Part shown: positions 1 through 11,936 of the stretch, one piece after another
Layout: the number at the start of each line of letters is the position of its first letter
Numbering within the stretch: the stretch's first letter is position 1
DNA from: Prevotella sp.
Lineage (GTDB): Bacteria > Bacteroidota > Bacteroidia > Bacteroidales > Bacteroidaceae
Assembly: GCA_024695815.1 (NCBI GenBank)
Contig: JAILHK010000016.1
Coordinates: 1-39,542 of the forward strand
DNA: 39,542 nt
Direction of reading: 5' to 3'
Program-made: the position numbers and the translations under genes
Notes under the pieces: model-generated
Database searches by the model: none
Told to the model about the DNA's origin: nothing
What the model saw: the letters and a program-made list of their open reading frames with translations, nothing else

Positions 1-139
1 AGACCTGAAAGAGTACATTGACTATTATAATAATGAGAGAATAAAGCTCAGACTAAAAGGAATGAGCCCAGTACAATACCGGACTCAATTCCATATGAGC
101 AATAGTGTTTAATCCGTCCAAACTTTGGGGTTCACTTCA
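1..139 (+). mobile_element. right end of an IS3-family insertion sequence (partial)
   Basis: The window opens inside an insertion sequence. The last transposase codons (2-112) are followed after a few bases by a likely terminal inverted repeat at 121-139; read on the minus strand it starts TGAAGTGAACCCC, resembling the TG...ACCCC ends common in IS3/IS150-type elements of Bacteroidetes. The left end and most of the transposase lie outside the window, so target-site duplication cannot be checked. The repeat array at 150 starts only ten bases after the inferred end, so the element may have inserted at or into that array. The exact end is an inference. Confidence 0.7.
2..112 (+). CDS. IS3-family transposase, C-terminal fragment
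   Basis: An open frame enters from the left edge and ends at TAA 110-112. Its residues include [10 protein letters not shown] and then [10 protein letters not shown], the C-terminal signature of the IS3/IS150 DDE integrase-like transposase (OrfB), where a conserved tyrosine/asparagine-rich helix precedes the 'G-x-S-P-x-x-Y-R' segment. Only 36 residues are visible, so neither the catalytic DDE residues nor the presence of an upstream orfA can be judged. The product would catalyse cut-and-paste or copy-out transposition of the element. Confidence 0.85.
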
Positions 140-149
140 AAATGAGCAT

Positions 150-228
150 TCTAGGGGCTAGACAGAGTGATTCTAGGGGCTAGATGAGGCGCGTCCAGGG
201 GCTAGACAGAAGGATTCTAGCCCCTGGA
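150..228. repeat. 22-bp-period CTAG array, four units (GGGG type)
   Basis: Four 13-bp units start at 150, 172, 194 and 216, exactly 22 bp apart, separated by 9-nt spacers of differing sequence. Units 1 and 2 are TCTAGGGGCTAGA, unit 3 is TCCAGGGGCTAGA, and unit 4 (TCTAGCCCCTGGA) is the exact reverse complement of unit 3, so units 3 and 4 could form a 13-bp hairpin with a 9-nt loop. The array holds six CTAG tetranucleotides. It sits between the IS3 end and the hairpin at 237-273. The same geometry recurs at 8134-8234 with a different core. Function unknown. Confidence 0.9.
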
Positions 229-236
229 ATCAGAAC

Positions 237-273
237 AAAAGTGGCACTATTACATTCGAATAGTGCCACTTTT
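237..273. terminator. GTGGCAC-family hairpin, likely terminator of the lipoprotein operon
   Basis: A perfect 15-bp stem (237-251 with 259-273) encloses a 7-nt loop. The arms begin AAAAGTGGCAC and end GTGCCACTTTT, giving a U-rich tract on either strand. It lies 29 bases beyond the stop of the minus-strand lipoprotein gene ending at 302, so it can act as that operon's rho-independent terminator. Related hairpins occur at 8036-8090, 8251-8271 and 17940-17974. Confidence 0.75.
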
Positions 274-301
274 ATACTGCAATAGCGGTGCTATGGCGAT
301 G

Positions 302-775
302 TTATTCTACTACTTTGATGGCGACAGCATGCAACTGTTGCCATCCGGCAGCATCGGTCAGGCGTATCATGAAGTGATAATCTCCAGGATCAACGTCGGC
401 CGGAATGGGGATGTTGACGTTGGCCTCATACTGACGCTGTCCCTCTGGGATATTGAAGTCCTGATTGTAGAGCCAAGGCTTGACAGGCGCTTTGTCTGCA
501 TCCATAGGACACTCTACGACGGAAGTGCTATGGGTATGGTGGTCGAAATTATTGTGAATCTCAATATTAAACTGTCCCAGTTCCATATTGTCGGTGAGAA
601 GATAATGCACCGCCATCGTTTCACCACGATGGTACACCTGACAGTCGATGGGATTGGCCACGATACCCTCTTCGCTGATAACGGGCATCTGCATATCCTT
701 GTCATCGCTATCAGAACTGCTGCACGCACAGAGTGCGCACAGCAGAGTGAAAATAAAAATTGTATTCTTTATCAT
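302..775 (-). CDS. DUF4625-type surface lipoprotein, His-rich
   Basis: This 157-residue protein has a lipoprotein signal peptide (lipobox LCAC, lipidated Cys18) followed by SSSDSDDKD. An acidic run just after the cysteine matches the lipoprotein export signal of Bacteroidetes, so it is probably displayed on the cell surface. The body is a single Ig-like beta domain with a histidine cluster near residues 72-83 (EIHNNFDHHTHS), typical of DUF4625 proteins. It is the last gene of a four-gene minus-strand operon with a TonB-dependent receptor, 25 bases after the preceding lipoprotein gene. The histidines and the receptor suggest metal capture or delivery; that role is inferred, not established. 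Confidence 0.75.
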   Translation of the reverse strand: MIKNTIFIFTLLCALCACSSSDSDDKDMQMPVISEEGIVANPIDCQVYHRGETMAVHYLLTDNMELGQFNIEIHNNFDHHTHSTSVVECPMDADKAPVKPWLYNQDFNIPEGQRQYEANVNIPIPADVDPGDYHFMIRLTDAAGWQQLHAVAIKVVE

Positions 776-7356: not shown

Positions 7357-7677
7357 ATGCAAATAATCTTTGACGACAAGGATTTGGAAGAACTCATCAC
7401 GACGGGGCGTAATAGCAAGTATAAGAAGTACATGCGCAATAAGAAATTTATGCATGCCCTCGCTACTGCATATAACTATCTGCGACTTTCTGAACGTGCT
7501 AGCGATCTCCGTTCCATCTCTTTTCTCCACTACGAACAGCTCTCTGGGACTAATGGCAAAAGTTCCATCCGAGTTGTCAACGGAATGGTGGAGCGAATCA
7601 TCTTCCGTGAATTCGAAGGCGGAATTAGAATTACGATTTTAGATTTAGACAACACTCATTATGGCAACAAGAAATGA
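7357..7677 (+). CDS. higB: HigB-type toxin (RelE/ParE fold)
   Basis: A 106-residue basic protein resembling the HigB/'plasmid maintenance killer' branch of RelE/ParE mRNA interferases, which cleave mRNA at the ribosome. The N-terminal half is helical and Lys/Arg-rich, and the C-terminal half contains the beta strands SIRVVNG, ERIIFREFE and GIRITILDLDNTHY. The toxin precedes the antitoxin, the hallmark higBA order, and overlaps it by 17 bases. It is slightly longer and more diverged than compact HigB proteins, so the catalytic residues cannot be assigned with confidence. Confidence 0.75.
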   Translation: MQIIFDDKDLEELITTGRNSKYKKYMRNKKFMHALATAYNYLRLSERASDLRSISFLHYEQLSGTNGKSSIRVVNGMVERIIFREFEGGIRITILDLDNTHYGNKK

Positions 7678-8038
7678 TAATCCGACGCCATTTATGGCGG
7701 TACACCCAGGAATGATGATTAAGCCCGAGCTCGAAGAGAGGGGCATCAGTCAGAAAGCATTTGCACAGATGCTTGGCACACAGCCCTCACATTTGAGCGA
7801 AGTACTCAATGGCAAACGAGCACTCACGGCAGAACTGGCCATGAAGATAGAGTCCACTATCGGTCTCCCAGCCAAAATTCTACTCTCCGCACAGGCACAG
7901 TATGAGCTAGAAACGGCAAGCGCTGATATTCCGAGAAGCAATCCGCAACAAGAGACAGTCACAGTCACCATTCCAAGTAGTGATCGAAACCTACTACAGG
8001 AAATTGTTAAGAGATTCGGCTGGGCATGCGTATTTTAA
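7661..8038 (+). CDS. higA: HigA-type antitoxin, XRE-family DNA-binding protein
   Basis: A 125-residue protein with a helix-turn-helix at about residues 27-70 (ISQKAFAQMLGTQPSHLSEV, then NGKRALTAELAMKIE). The preceding HPGMMIKPELEERG is the standard opening of the HigA/VapI 'addiction module antidote' family. The C-terminal third (about 85-125) is less conserved and ends in a hydrophobic helix. It would neutralise the overlapping toxin and repress the shared promoter. Its stop codon (8036-8038) is the first three bases of a long hairpin arm, so the message ends almost immediately after translation. Confidence 0.85.
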   Translation: MATRNDNPTPFMAVHPGMMIKPELEERGISQKAFAQMLGTQPSHLSEVLNGKRALTAELAMKIESTIGLPAKILLSAQAQYELETASADIPRSNPQQETVTVTIPSSDRNLLQEIVKRFGWACVF

Positions 8039-8090
8039 CAACAGGAAAGTGGCACTTTACACATCGTAAAGTGCCACTTTTCTGTTGTTA
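8036..8090. terminator. long GTGGCAC-family hairpin at the end of higA
   Basis: Two 25-base arms (8036-8060 and 8066-8090) pair with a single G-T wobble around a 5-nt loop; the core arm is GTGGCACTTTAC. The left arm begins with the higA stop codon. There is a short T run inside the right arm but no clean U-tract after it. Directly behind it, 8093-8116 holds a shorter related stem (CTTTTGC with GCAAAAG, loop CAT). Confidence 0.75.
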
Positions 8091-8133
8091 TAGTGCCACT
8101 TTTGCCATGCAAAAGGGTAACTATTGATATTAT

Positions 8134-8234
8134 TCTAGAGTCTAGAAAGCACATTTCTAGACTTTAGGAATGTAACATCTAGAGTCTAGAAACAATCATT
8201 CTAGACTTTAGAAATAGCTTTTCTAGAGTCTAGA
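8134..8234. repeat. 22-bp-period CTAG array, five units of alternating orientation
   Basis: Five 13-bp units begin at 8134, 8156, 8178, 8200 and 8222, exactly 22 bp apart with 9-nt spacers. Units 1, 3 and 5 are TCTAGAGTCTAGA; unit 2 is TCTAGACTTTAGG and unit 4 is TCTAGACTTTAGA, which are near reverse complements of the odd units. Adjacent units can therefore pair as hairpins. Eight CTAG tetranucleotides are present. Spacers mostly start with AA but otherwise differ. The array lies between the 3' ends of higA and the PL11 gene, flanked on both sides by GTGGCAC-type hairpins. Same geometry as 150-228, with a different core. Function unknown. Confidence 0.9.
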
Positions 8235-8250
8235 ATGATTCTGATACCGT

Positions 8251-8271
8251 CACTTTGCCATACGCAAAGTG
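8251..8271. terminator. short CACTTTGC hairpin behind the PL11 gene
   Basis: An 8-bp perfect stem (8251-8258 with 8264-8271) and 5-nt loop, 11 bases beyond the stop of the minus-strand PL11 gene at 8283. It shares the CACTTT-C...G-AAAGTG core of the hairpin family but has no U-tract, so termination is uncertain. Confidence 0.5.
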
Positions 8272-8282
8272 GCCTTATTGAC

Positions 8283-11200
8283 TTATAATCTTACCTTTTT
8301 TGCAGTGCCATCCGACAGCTTTACGATGTAAACCTTGCCACTCTCAAGATGTTGGACGCGACGGCCATCGAGGGTGTAATAAGCCACGGGCACTGCCTGA
8401 CGGGTTGCAGGTGCAACGCTGGTGGTTTCTTCTGGCGACATACGCGAAGCGTAGTTGTTCTCCACACGACAGTTCAATAGGATATTGTCGAACTGTGCCT
8501 GACCGGCATAGCGGTTGGTGTTGTAGAGGATGCTGCCCACCTTGACGAACGATGAGCCAATCGTGTACTTAGTACCATCGACATAGAGGAAGGTGCCGGC
8601 CTGCGAAGAGCGCAGTGATACGTGGTGATTGATGGTGGGAGCTGTCTCGGACTTGAAGTAGGTGCCCTTGGTGACACCATAGTGACCCACCACAGTGCCG
8701 TTGACAACGATGTCGCCCGTGGTTGCGCCAGTGAAGGCACGGAAGGTGACGATGGCACCATTGCTCTGGTTGCGAAGGATGATTTCGCCGGCACGGTCGG
8801 CATTGCTGCCGATGATGGATGTCTGGGCGAAGTCGAAGTTGAACTCGTATGAGGTGGTGGTGGCATACTCGCTGATGGCGGGAATGGTATAGGTAGCCGA
8901 GGTGCCGTTGTTGGCATCGAGCACGCTCTTCAGCCAAATACACTTAGAACCGCTGGCACCGTTCGACTGCTGGACGGCGGTCAGACGACCGGGAAGGGCG
9001 ATGGTCCAGTTGTCCTGCCAGTTGGAACCTTCAAAGTTCTGTACCAGCACATCGAGATAGGTAGCACCATCAATCTGATAAGTGGCATCGATAGCCGTAC
9101 CCACGTGCAGGTAATAGCTCTTGTTGGCCTGGTTGAAGAACACCGTGCCGAAGTGTCCATTAACCTGCGCGCTACACTCCACCTTCACGTCGAGCAGACT
9201 GGCCGAACCGGTAGCCATGCCCTGGAGCGTGCCCAACAGGTAGTCGCCATCGGCCAAAGCACCGGCAGAGCGGATGTCAATGACAGGCATCAAGTACTGA
9301 GGACCATACTGCCAGTTCTGTGTGCGCACGAAAAGGGTGCCAATGTTCAGGCGGTCGCCGTTAGCATTGCCATTGCCACTGATGTCGAACACCAGACGTG
9401 AGCCCTCCTTGATGATGAGGTTGCCAATGGTGAGGTGGGCATAGCCGTTATCGTTGACATAAGGAGTGGTCTTCTGGTGGCTGGTGATATAGAGCGCAGA
9501 GCCATACTCCATGCTAACAGACTTGTACTGACTCTCGGCTGCGGCCAGGTCAGAACCAAAGAACAGTTCGGTGAAGCGGTTGGCCCATACGTCGCTGTTG
9601 GTGATGCTACCATTACAGATCAGCGCGCCCTGCCAAACATCGGTCTTGCCCGAATGAGTATGCGTGGTGTAGGGCAGGTGGGCTGCCGACGAGCCCTGCT
9701 TACAGAGATTGGTGGTGCCAGAGAGGCCATTGCCCGTGAGGCGGATGCGGTCCCACGTATGCTTGGTTTCGAGATACTGCACGCGATCACCACCCTCGAT
9801 GGTGGTACGTGAGTTCAGGAAGAGCGTCGAGGGCTTGGCACCAGCATTGATATTGACCATGTACTGAGAGCCATTGCCGTCGGGCCATACAAACACGTCG
9901 CGACCATTGAGGGCGGTAGTAATGGAACCGTTGTTGCCAATGCCCGTGCGACCTGTCCATGTCAAAGCGGGAGGAGCCTGCGTGAGTCCTTCCAGCTCGC
10001 CCACGAAGAAGCTGGGATGAGGAGGTTGGTTGTAACCTTCGGTCTGCCATACCATGGCCTGACGATACTGGTGGTCGTACCACAGTGACTGCATGCGGTG
10101 TTCGGTAGGTGTGACGGTGGTATAGACACGGATGAAACGGTTATCTGAAGAGCGTACCACCAGCTCTTCGCGCCAGTCGCCCAGGATATCGCCTGTGGCA
10201 CAAGGGTTCTTCTTGGTGCCGTTGATGCACGAGGTGGCATACGAGCCGTGGTTGGTATCGAAGATGCGTTGTCCCAACTTGTCGATATAGAGATAGCTCT
10301 CGTTAGAGCCAGGGCCATTGATGGTCTCAGACAGCAGGTCGCCGTCCCAATAGATACGGAAGTTCAGCGCCATGGGGTAAGGCGTCTGCGCATTCCAGTT
10401 GTTGGCCATGCCACTGATGTAAACAGGCGATGTGGGGTTGGGCTGCACATAGCTCAGAGGAATGATGCCCGAGCCTGTCGAAGCACCGATACCACCAGGA
10501 TACTGGTTGGTGAAATTGCCAGCCATGGCACGTCCGTCGTCGCCACTGCCGGGTGTGCGGGCATAGATCTCGCAGGTGGTGGCATTGCGGAAGTTGTTGC
10601 AAGGATGGTCCTCGTTGCATGCAAAGGTCTCCAGACCACGACGGAAGGGATCCAGGTCGCCTGTATGGGAAGCATCGCCATGTCCGAGACCTGTAGAAGA
10701 ACAGCCATGCAGCGAGTTGTCGGCCGTGTGGAAGTCGAGCACCATGGAGCCATAGATAATCTCGTCGCTGCCATCCTCATCGACATCGGCAATAGAGAAG
10801 TTGTGGTTGCCCTGGCCGTTCCAACCGCTGTTGTTATAGCTGTGCCAGGTGTTGCCCACCTTATATAATTTATTAGTGCTCTTGTTCACGCGATAAGTAC
10901 AGGCATCTATCTTGGTATAGATGCCACGACCCAGGAAGATATAGGGATTGACACCATCCATGTAGGGGGCGCCCATGAAGTACTTGCTGGAACGATGACC
11001 ATAGGAATCGCCCCAGTCTGAGGCATTGCCACGGGGCAAGGGATAGGCGATGACGTCGTAGGTGCGACCTGTGCGACCATTGATATACATGAGCCACTCT
11101 TCGCCGGCATTAGAAAATGTCATGTTGGCGGTATGGGTGATGCCGTTGCGGATGTTCTCGTTGACATTGCCAATGGTCTCGGTGGTTCCATCGGCATGGT

Positions 11201-11936
11201 GAATAACGGTGTTGGCACCACCGCGATAAAGCACTTCGCAAGCGCCATCCTCGTTCCAGTCGAAGGCCACTGCATCCCACTGCTCATCAGCACCGTAGCA
11301 GATATTGGGTCCGCAATCAATCCACCACAGACGTCCATAGTTGATGCTGGAGGCATAGACCTCTATCTGGCAGTACATCTGATAGTTGTTGGCAGGGAAC
11401 AGGTTGTCTTGGTCGGTCTGATTCTTACGTTTCACGATGAAGTCAACCTTACCGTCGCCATCCACATCGCCCAGCGAGATATCATTAATCACATAGTTGG
11501 CCATCGCCGTAGAGGGGTTGTTTTGTTTCCACACCGTCACACCACTACGTGCCTGAACATTAGATACGGGAATCTCGAAATACTGGTTCTGCCAAGGGGT
11601 GACGGCTGCACACTGTGCTCCCTCTACCCCATTGCGGACTGCTGCCACGGTGTATTGGCTAGAAGTGCTGCCACTGGCATCGGCATAGTTGGAGGCATAG
11701 AGGTTCTGGGCAATCAGCGCACCGTTGCGATAGAGCTTGTACGTCACGCCATAGTACTCGTCTGCCTGTACGCGCCAACTGACAAACACGCCCTGCGACA
11801 CCTTGACGGCCACCAAGCCGCGATCCAGCTGATCGGTCTTGCGCTGTGCAGAAGCATTAGTCACGAAAAGAAACGAAAGGATAGCCAACAGAGCTATGCT
11901 TCCATACCTGCATAGGTACTTTGATAAGTGTTTCAT
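8283..11936 (-). CDS. secreted PL11 rhamnogalacturonan lyase, multidomain (1217 aa)
   Basis: PL11 enzymes cleave the rhamnogalacturonan I backbone of pectin by beta-elimination. A signal peptide ends NASA before QRKTDQLDRG. The PL11 propeller spans about 31-650 and contains the family opening DRGLVAV, Ca-binding-like DVDGDGKVDF and DVDEDGSDEI repeats, GHGDASH, CNEDHP, LNFRIYWDGDLL, TGDILGDWREELVVR and the closing GYNQPPHPSFFVGE. A second beta module (about 655-940) is shared with the PL11 protein at 13421. A jelly-roll-like domain (about 950-1145) and a type IX secretion-like tail (YTLDGRRV...VYIVKL...KKVRL) follow. No SusC/SusD pair is adjacent. Probably acts outside the cell. Confidence 0.88.
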   Translation of the reverse strand: MKHLSKYLCRYGSIALLAILSFLFVTNASAQRKTDQLDRGLVAVKVSQGVFVSWRVQADEYYGVTYKLYRNGALIAQNLYASNYADASGSTSSQYTVAAVRNGVEGAQCAAVTPWQNQYFEIPVSNVQARSGVTVWKQNNPSTAMANYVINDISLGDVDGDGKVDFIVKRKNQTDQDNLFPANNYQMYCQIEVYASSINYGRLWWIDCGPNICYGADEQWDAVAFDWNEDGACEVLYRGGANTVIHHADGTTETIGNVNENIRNGITHTANMTFSNAGEEWLMYINGRTGRTYDVIAYPLPRGNASDWGDSYGHRSSKYFMGAPYMDGVNPYIFLGRGIYTKIDACTYRVNKSTNKLYKVGNTWHSYNNSGWNGQGNHNFSIADVDEDGSDEIIYGSMVLDFHTADNSLHGCSSTGLGHGDASHTGDLDPFRRGLETFACNEDHPCNNFRNATTCEIYARTPGSGDDGRAMAGNFTNQYPGGIGASTGSGIIPLSYVQPNPTSPVYISGMANNWNAQTPYPMALNFRIYWDGDLLSETINGPGSNESYLYIDKLGQRIFDTNHGSYATSCINGTKKNPCATGDILGDWREELVVRSSDNRFIRVYTTVTPTEHRMQSLWYDHQYRQAMVWQTEGYNQPPHPSFFVGELEGLTQAPPALTWTGRTGIGNNGSITTALNGRDVFVWPDGNGSQYMVNINAGAKPSTLFLNSRTTIEGGDRVQYLETKHTWDRIRLTGNGLSGTTNLCKQGSSAAHLPYTTHTHSGKTDVWQGALICNGSITNSDVWANRFTELFFGSDLAAAESQYKSVSMEYGSALYITSHQKTTPYVNDNGYAHLTIGNLIIKEGSRLVFDISGNGNANGDRLNIGTLFVRTQNWQYGPQYLMPVIDIRSAGALADGDYLLGTLQGMATGSASLLDVKVECSAQVNGHFGTVFFNQANKSYYLHVGTAIDATYQIDGATYLDVLVQNFEGSNWQDNWTIALPGRLTAVQQSNGASGSKCIWLKSVLDANNGTSATYTIPAISEYATTTSYEFNFDFAQTSIIGSNADRAGEIILRNQSNGAIVTFRAFTGATTGDIVVNGTVVGHYGVTKGTYFKSETAPTINHHVSLRSSQAGTFLYVDGTKYTIGSSFVKVGSILYNTNRYAGQAQFDNILLNCRVENNYASRMSPEETTSVAPATRQAVPVAYYTLDGRRVQHLESGKVYIVKLSDGTAKKVRL

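What the first reader, a model, noticed from the sequence alone, without database searches (positions are those of the whole stretch)
8134..8234. Second array with identical 13+9 geometry but a different core sequence
Five units begin at 8134, 8156, 8178, 8200 and 8222, again 22 bp apart with 9-nt spacers, but the core is GAGTC/GACTT instead of GGGGC. Units within each array are nearly identical, while the two arrays differ. Geometry is therefore conserved between arrays and sequence is homogenised within each one. This pattern suggests selection on spacing and palindromicity, with copying or conversion inside an array. Orientation alternates here, so neighbours can pair as hairpins. I do not recall a described element with these rules.
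Basis: partly seen in the sequence, partly recalled or inferred. Interest (0 to 1): 0.8.

Follow-up and report, generated by a model that had tools for sequence, protein, structure and literature searches.

The report
Helix-phased palindrome arrays between bacterial genes
Between genes of the bacterium Xylanibacter brevis and of many relatives lie rows of short mirror-symmetric DNA words repeated every 22 letters, about two turns of the helix; the words differ from array to array and from species to species while the spacing does not, so they are likely a row of landing sites for a still unknown protein that would coat or bend the DNA along one face.

Summary
Five 13-bp imperfect palindromes start at 8134, 8156, 8178, 8200 and 8222. 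They are the inner block of a larger array (8046-8287) whose outer units (AWAS-N5-STWT) keep the same 22-bp register and fill the gap between two convergent genes.

The draft genome, related to Xylanibacter brevis ATCC 19188, holds at least 48 such arrays; 187 of 188 unit spacings are multiples of 11 (165 are 22), and 127 of 127 in 30 ATCC 19188 arrays. Other species of the genus carry other cores at the same 13+9 pitch: a generic pattern occurs in 63 of 200 genus genomes. In 21 genomes chosen for it there are 2542 matches at pitch 22, 5 at 21, 44 at 23. A+T content in the arrays oscillates at 11.0 bp. Between strains arms changed 2.4%, spacers 12.9%.

Hairpins are not the general rule: neighbouring spacers in CTAG blocks are not complementary above chance, and in well-formed outer units only the innermost symmetric pair covaries. 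IS tails abut GGG-type units at one fixed position (8 of 8 junctions).

Best reading: rows of sites for a symmetric DNA-bending or wrapping protein, working like E. coli BIMEs but not REPs. No protein was identified.

The parts
8134..8146 (+). CTAG unit 1, TCTAGAGTCTAGA
8156..8168 (+). CTAG unit 2, TCTAGACTTTAGG
8178..8190 (+). CTAG unit 3, TCTAGAGTCTAGA
8200..8212 (+). CTAG unit 4, TCTAGACTTTAGA
8222..8234 (+). CTAG unit 5, TCTAGAGTCTAGA
8046..8133 (.). left flank: four AWAG-type units (8046, 8068, 8090, 8112) with 9-nt spacers, same 22-bp register; the first two also form a terminator-like hairpin
8244..8287 (.). right flank: two AWAG-type units (8244, 8266) in the same register, reaching the end of the next gene
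150..228 (.). first array: four GGG-type CTAG units at 150, 172, 194, 216
238..303 (.). right flank units of the first array (238, 260, 282)
1..139 (+). end of an insertion sequence; its tail stops 10 nt before the unit at 150, the position used by the other IS tails found at arrays
   Evidence: transposase domains checked only in the like copy at L057
7661..8038 (+). gene upstream of the array, HTH_3 DNA-binding protein
8283..11936 (-). convergent gene on the other side, rhamnogalacturonan lyase family 11

Best explanation
The five units are the inner block of an intergenic array of two-fold symmetric DNA sites set 22 bp apart, likely a row of binding sites that a symmetric DNA-bending or wrapping protein would occupy along one face of the helix. 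Shown: the pitch of 22 with rare half-steps of 11; one register through inner and outer units; the 11.0-bp A+T oscillation; lower divergence of arms than of spacers between strains; other cores with the same pitch in other species; a position nearer to gene 3' ends; gain and loss of whole units; IS tails at one fixed point of the unit. Inferred: that a protein reads the sites. Outer positions that are A or T, or G or C, and vary independently in the two halves suggest reading of groove shape by a symmetric protein rather than base pairing. Predicted but untested: that the bound array works as a local supercoil or nucleoid anchor and gene insulator, as BIMEs are thought to do, and that the core drifts together with its reader. 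Arrays would grow and be homogenised by tandem duplication and by copying between arrays.
For: Pitch: with no register condition, spacings that are multiples of 11 are 187 of 188 (own, 48 arrays) and 127 of 127 (30 ATCC 19188 arrays). Cross-species: AWAS-N5-STWT cores in six sampled genus relatives lie 22 bp apart 20 times (in five of the six) against about 4 for 26 other distances together; arrays with other cores; 63 of 200 genus genomes match a generic two-unit pattern, 39 of them five times or more, reversed-pattern control 35 matches in all against 2835; 2542: 5: 44 matches at pitches 22: 21: 23 in 21 genomes chosen for matches at 22. W periodicity power 14.7 at 11.00 bp in 41 arrays against 1.1 in 154 control stretches. 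Strain divergence: arms 19/802, centre 16/240, spacers 93/721, outside 509/5315. In 255 of 348 outer units with intact A.A..T.T ends, positions 2/12, 4/10 and 5/9 do not covary; at 4/10 the unpaired GG+CC (75) far exceed CG (11). Spacers in CTAG blocks are not complementary at lags 0-2. Array nearer the 3' end in 17 of 18 tandem gene pairs. IS tail at one position in 8 of 8 junctions.
Against: No protein was identified and no binding is shown. The RNA of 8039-8282 folds very stably (-118.7 kcal/mol, z -17) and the first two flank units form a terminator-like hairpin. In all 348 outer units four of six symmetric pairs (1/13, 3/11, 4/10, 6/8) covary above shuffles; in the well-formed 255 only 6/8 of the four pairs tested remains. 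Some off-register control pairs also exceed shuffles, so that test is not clean. In the flanks adjacent inner arms are perfectly complementary in 17 of 348 cases against 1.9% by chance, and flank spacers 7 of 9 or better in 9 of 348 against 0.8%; in other species 6 of 20 adjacent pairs are perfectly complementary in the inner five bases. CTAG spacers at lag 3 are slightly above the null (3.77 against 3.42, n 47; none at 7 or more). Pitch could be kept by descent through 22-bp duplication. 137 of 200 genus genomes lack the generic pattern, so the element, or this form of it, is dispensable. 11-bp periodicity as such is described as ubiquitous in genomes (PMC1242344, passages read).
Confidence: 0.5

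Rival explanations
1. Selfish minisatellite or MITE-like element without host function: the unit spreads by duplication and by copying into other intergenic gaps, and palindromicity reflects the copying machinery.
For: Gains and losses of exactly 22 bp between strains; one near-identical copy of an array, with part of its flank units but without its neighbours, at another locus (L060 and L037, 95% over 204 bp); replacement of arrays at about 4 of 18 orthologous loci; patchy distribution (63 of 200 genus genomes).
Against: Arms diverge less than spacers and surroundings (2.4% against 12.9% and 9.6%), pitch keeps helical phase including 11-bp half-steps, and the same pitch holds with unrelated cores in other species. 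BrickBuilt/ISPg-type terminal repeats are not enriched (2 of 48 arrays against 10 of 48 shuffled).
Confidence: 0.22
2. Transcribed hairpins: arrays are stacks of alternative Rho-independent terminators or mRNA-stabilising stems at gene ends.
For: Strong RNA fold; terminator-like sites at 7600-8600: 4 against 0.6 in shuffles, two of them in the array; arrays lie nearer 3' ends; isolated AAAGTGGCACTTT pairs elsewhere look like ordinary terminators; minority complementarity in flanks and in other species.
Against: CTAG spacer complementarity is at or below chance at lags 0-2 while direct identity is raised; positions 2/12, 4/10 and 5/9 of well-formed outer units do not covary; adjacent units are mostly in the same orientation; a terminator needs no exact 22-bp pitch, and pitches 21 and 23 are nearly absent; arrays also lie between divergent genes (7 of 36 with both neighbours called).
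Confidence: 0.13
3. DNA gyrase sites, as for E. coli BIME-2: gyrase wraps the phased outer units and cuts in the array.
For: The E. coli gyrase motif has flanks with a 10.75-bp GC period, A+T facing the protein, and gyrase cuts are enriched in BIME-2 (PMC6379681, passages read); the arrays oscillate at 11.0 bp and lie nearer 3' ends, where positive supercoils would gather.
Against: The gyrase motif has a central part of about 36 bp between its periodic flanks, whereas here the register runs through the whole array; gyrase is universal (recalled) but the generic arrays are nearly confined to one genus; a degenerate wrapping motif would not require near-invariant TCTAG arms.
Confidence: 0.13

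Closest known systems
REP / BIME elements (E. coli BIME-2)
   Same: Extragenic palindromic units in arrays, targeted by IS elements including IS3-family IS1397 and ISKpn1 (PMC1525189, passages read). That BIMEs lie near 3' ends, are homogenised within an array and vary between strains is recalled; only titles in reference lists were seen.
   Different: Core of 13-15 bp, not 20-40 bp; no GTAG at any unit edge (0 of 236); neighbours mostly in the same orientation; one fixed 22-bp pitch kept across species with unrelated cores.
BrickBuilt MITE of Porphyromonas gingivalis
   Same: Intergenic tandem repeat of about two helical turns in a Bacteroidales species (order recalled), unit number varying between strains (PMC4596501: abstract, section 5, part 1 of 2 of section 7, section 8 read).
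   Different: 23-nt unit without spacers, leader and tail with IS5-like terminal repeats; such repeats are not enriched at the arrays.
PINSR, 188-bp repeat of Prevotella intermedia/nigrescens
   Same: Intergenic, 177 and 184 copies in two strains, no terminal inverted repeats, lineage-specific in Prevotella (PMC4755523: abstract, passages, sections 7 and 14 read).
   Different: Described as one 188-bp consensus; no 22-bp rule in the parts read. Its letters are in a figure that is not held, so whether it is a local form of the same system is untested.
Iteron arrays of plasmid origins
   Same: Sites about 22 bp apart that put bound proteins on one face of the helix (recalled, no call).
   Different: Iterons are direct repeats at one origin next to a Rep gene (recalled); these are palindromes at about 47 loci of a draft genome.

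Membership tests
REP/BIME | extragenic location, arrays of palindromes | tested here: met
   No called gene lies across any of 47 arrays listed, overlaps up to 60 bp tolerated, own gene-calling script; palindromic cores
REP/BIME | unit of 20-40 bp tagged at one end by GTAG or CGTC | tested here: not met
   13-bp core; GTAG at an edge in 0 of 236 units; CGTC in 30 of 236, so not a constant tag; definition from PMC3733652, abstract and passages seen
REP/BIME | alternating orientation of neighbouring units in BIMEs | tested here: not met
   143 same, 36 opposite; definition from the abstract start of PMC2817692 in a search listing
REP/BIME | associated RAYT tyrosine transposase | not tested
REP/BIME | bound by gyrase, IHF or Pol I | not testable with these tools
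   needs binding or cleavage data
BrickBuilt MITE | 23-nt repeat without spacers | tested here: not met
   22-bp period, conserved arm plus variable spacer
BrickBuilt MITE | IS5-like terminal inverted repeats | tested here: not met
   2 of 48 arrays within 350 bp at up to 2 mismatches, shuffled control 10 of 48
Intrinsic terminator arrays | paired arms covary and flanking spacers extend the stem | tested here: not met
   CTAG spacers at or below chance at lags 0-2; 2/12, 4/10, 5/9 do not covary in 255 well-formed outer units, 6/8 does; a minority of flank arms and spacers are complementary
PINSR | match to the 188-bp consensus | not testable with these tools

The most novel reading that the evidence does not exclude
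A genus-wide DNA scaffold code: intergenic DNA is written in phased palindromes that keep every dyad on one face of the helix, read by a dedicated DNA-coating or wrapping protein whose specificity changes from species to species together with the core, so that geometry is the conserved signal and sequence is not.
Probability: 0.3. Interest if true: 0.88.

Novelty: new variant of a known kind. Interest (0 to 1): 0.68.

Why it matters
Bacterial intergenic repeats are usually defined by sequence. Here the conserved property is helical geometry, across species and unrelated cores, which points to a structural role for DNA between genes that sequence searches would miss. It also gives a natural set of IS target sites and possible strain markers.

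Tried and rejected
MITE/BrickBuilt: terminal repeats not enriched. Rfam: no family at gathering score in the window. Viral origin: exact two-unit CTAG pattern in 0 viral contigs. Terminator between convergent genes only: arrays lie in all gene orientations (>> 11, >< 10, << 8, <> 7 of 36 with both neighbours called, one << being next to an IS gene; all adjacent pairs in the loci 39, 20, 47, 19). Hairpin code: rejected as the general rule, though the window's own RNA fold is strong, arms 8194-8214 and 8220-8240, spacers included, are 95% complementary, and flanks show a minority signal. CTAG arrays in other genera: 1 of 399 family genomes (own only); the scan of named genomes found 16 loci, all X. 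brevis ATCC 19188 (exact three-unit pattern). Generic arrays outside the genus: 34 of 279 genomes with at most 3 matches each, against 12 of 22 in the genus.

Limits of counts: gene calls are from my own codon-usage script (an earlier script failed). The own-genome list came from capped listings plus two complete lists of exact units, so arrays without an exact unit may be missing. The ATCC list was capped at contig 11, so its 30 loci are a part; 18 of the 30 had an orthologous array among my own loci, and I did not follow the other 12. One search used a unit set with some spurious two-mismatch hits; correct this. L064 and L069 share an exact 106-bp contig end and are probably one array split in two, so 48 arrays are about 47. 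One search examined 17 orthologous arrays, dropped 2 as replaced (L048/L084, L044/L085) from the sums, and kept L067/L090, which by eye is also replaced, and L049/L162, whose spacers are 60% alike; L071/L086 was seen only. Gap lengths: eight of 22 bp, one of 23, and 26 others from 1 to 99, many of them in the badly aligned pairs. Of the 63 genus genomes, 15 have a single match. In the de novo palindrome scan of six relatives period 22 has 63 starts against 1-14 at 13 other periods, but it stands out clearly only in G206, G299 and G403; 7 of the 10 starts of G426 lie in L146, which may be a coding repeat, G401 is mixed (6 starts at period 23) and G406 has 1.

Full report
WHAT IS THERE. The five units and their spacing are as reported. 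They are the inner part of an array that fills the gap between an HTH_3 gene (7661-8038, +) and a convergent rhamnogalacturonan lyase gene (8283-11936, -). On the left four and on the right two further 13-bp units with another core (AAAGTGGCACTTT and variants) continue the same 22-bp register. In the window only period 22 gives high-scoring runs of palindromes.

THE GENOME. The window is one contig of a 2.63-Mb draft genome (83% complete). Exact TCTAGAGTCTAGA occurs 78 times and TCTAGGGGCTAGA 63 times, reversed-pattern controls 0. I fetched 44 regions and with the window examined 48 arrays of two or more units (about 47 distinct). The usual build is about four outer units, about five CTAG units, about four outer units; 28 of 58 contiguous CTAG blocks have exactly five units. 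Several arrays have two CTAG blocks, one ACT-type and one CCC-type, joined by a similar linker of 9+11 bases. Counting units with at most one mismatch and no register condition, 187 of 188 spacings are multiples of 11: 165 of 22, 14 of 44, 4 each of 33 and 55; the exception is 42.

UNIT LOGIC. The 348 outer units have the form A-W-A-S-N5-S-T-W-T plus a spacer near TGCNNNGCA. Over all of them four of six symmetric pairs covary above shuffles, but this set includes positions past the array ends. In the 255 units with intact A.A and T.T ends, positions 2/12 (A or T on both sides), 4/10 (G or C) and 5/9 do not covary; only 6/8 does. At 4/10 there are 149 GC, 43 GG, 32 CC and 11 CG, which is not what base pairing would select. 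Spacers inside CTAG blocks are not complementary above chance at lags 0 to 2 (lag 3 slightly above, 3.77 against 3.42, n 47), but neighbours are alike in direct sense (4.64 of 9 against 3.46 between arrays). Flanks show a minority of complementary arms (17 of 348, chance 1.9%). This fits half-sites read largely independently plus tandem duplication, not base-paired stems as the general rule. A+T content oscillates at 11.00 bp in 41 arrays (power 14.7, control 1.1; seven IS-abutted arrays left out), so A/T tracts would face one side of the helix along the array. For comparison, the E. coli gyrase motif has flanks with a 10.75-bp GC period and BIME-2 elements are enriched in gyrase cuts (PMC6379681, passages read); an 11-bp bias is described for genomes in general (PMC1242344, passages read).

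STRAIN COMPARISON. Like arrays occur in X. brevis ATCC 19188 (127 of 127 spacings multiples of 11 in 30 arrays). Neighbouring DNA is 78-99% identical. Of 18 orthologous loci compared (17, one more), most align, and several differ by whole units of 22 bp; about four carry different units at the same gene pair with the same build (L044/L085 have eight CTAG units each). In the 15 arrays kept for the sums, arms changed 19 of 802, centres 16 of 240, spacers 93 of 721, surroundings 509 of 5315. In the own genome one array with part of its flank units is nearly copied elsewhere (95% over 204 bp, no match beyond), so copying between loci happens.

OTHER SPECIES. The CTAG core was found in the own genome and ATCC 19188 only (1 of 399 family genomes; 16 loci in the named-genome scan). 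The geometry is wider. In six sampled genus relatives (0.97 Mb) cores of the outer type lie 22 bp apart 20 times, in five of the six, against about 4 for 26 other distances; palindrome runs at period 22 stand out in three (G206, G299, G403), with cores such as AATCAAATTGATT, AAAGGTGGCCTTT or AAAGATAACCTTT. A generic two-unit pattern occurs in 63 of 200 genus genomes, in 39 of them five times or more and up to 359 times, reversed-pattern control 35 in all. In 21 genomes picked from these, pitch 22 gives 2542 matches, pitch 21 gives 5 and pitch 23 gives 44. In a family-wide draw, 12 of 22 genus genomes match, 11 of them six times or more, against 34 of 279 others with at most three matches.

POSITION AND IS. 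No called gene lies across any of 47 arrays (overlaps up to 60 bp tolerated). In tandem gene pairs the array is nearer the 3' end in 17 of 18 (median gap 146 to 3' ends, 272 to 5' ends). In the fetched array loci eight IS tails abut CTAG units (at L065 a single unit) and all use one position: 10 nt before a GGG-facing unit (6) or 3 nt before a CCC-facing unit (2), which is the same target read from either side; a ninth tail (L040) lies away from the units. For one of the two tail types all four exact copies in the genome are at arrays, and two one-mismatch matches back to back on C21 are not; the other type was not counted genome-wide. The copy at L057 encodes rve and HTH_21 domains, which I take, from recall, as IS3 family. 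REP-targeting by IS3-family elements is known (PMC1525189, passages read).

READING. The facts call for something that counts helical turns on double-stranded DNA, and a symmetric DNA-bending or wrapping protein is the simplest candidate. The function (supercoil or nucleoid anchor, insulation of neighbouring genes) is predicted by likeness to BIMEs and is untested. The selfish-repeat and gyrase readings remain open. Hairpins look like a minority feature.

NOVELTY. Searches of the paper library for Prevotella, Bacteroidetes, 22-bp, palindromic and intergenic repeats gave BrickBuilt, REP surveys and PINSR, but none of the listings or passages that I saw states the pitch rule. Most subscription journals are not in that library. 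The kind (extragenic palindrome arrays) is known; the fixed helical pitch with changing cores across a genus appears to be a new variant.

Noticed in passing
window 8039-8087: A 22-bp stem with a 5-nt loop formed by the first two flank units and their outer spacers, possibly a terminator between the two convergent genes.
   Followed up: partly
L034, L036, L037, L060, L062, L064, L067: Double-block arrays with an ACT-type and a CCC-type block joined by a similar linker (ACCAAAGCAATAGTTTCTGT and variants, in both orientations) that shifts the register by 11 bp, one helical turn.
   Followed up: partly
L060:140-343 and L037:2372-2575: An array with part of its flank units is copied at 95% identity to a second locus with unrelated neighbours.
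   Followed up: partly
L156, L160 (G401): 22-bp repeats of another build, TTTTNNNNNAAAA with a rather constant spacer near CGATACTAC, in a genus relative.
   Followed up: no
L188, L189 (G056, G547): A conserved 22-bp-phased repeat with CTTT-ended units shared by two genus relatives; could be related to the PINSR type of repeat of oral Prevotella.
   Followed up: no
window 8102-8236: Five sigma-70-like promoter matches around the array against 1.4 in shuffles, four of them built on TAGAAT of the CTAG units; consensus matches only.
   Followed up: no
L166 with L043 and L066: A genome rearrangement between the two strains: the left part of L166 matches L066 and the right part matches L043 from just before its second array.
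   Followed up: no
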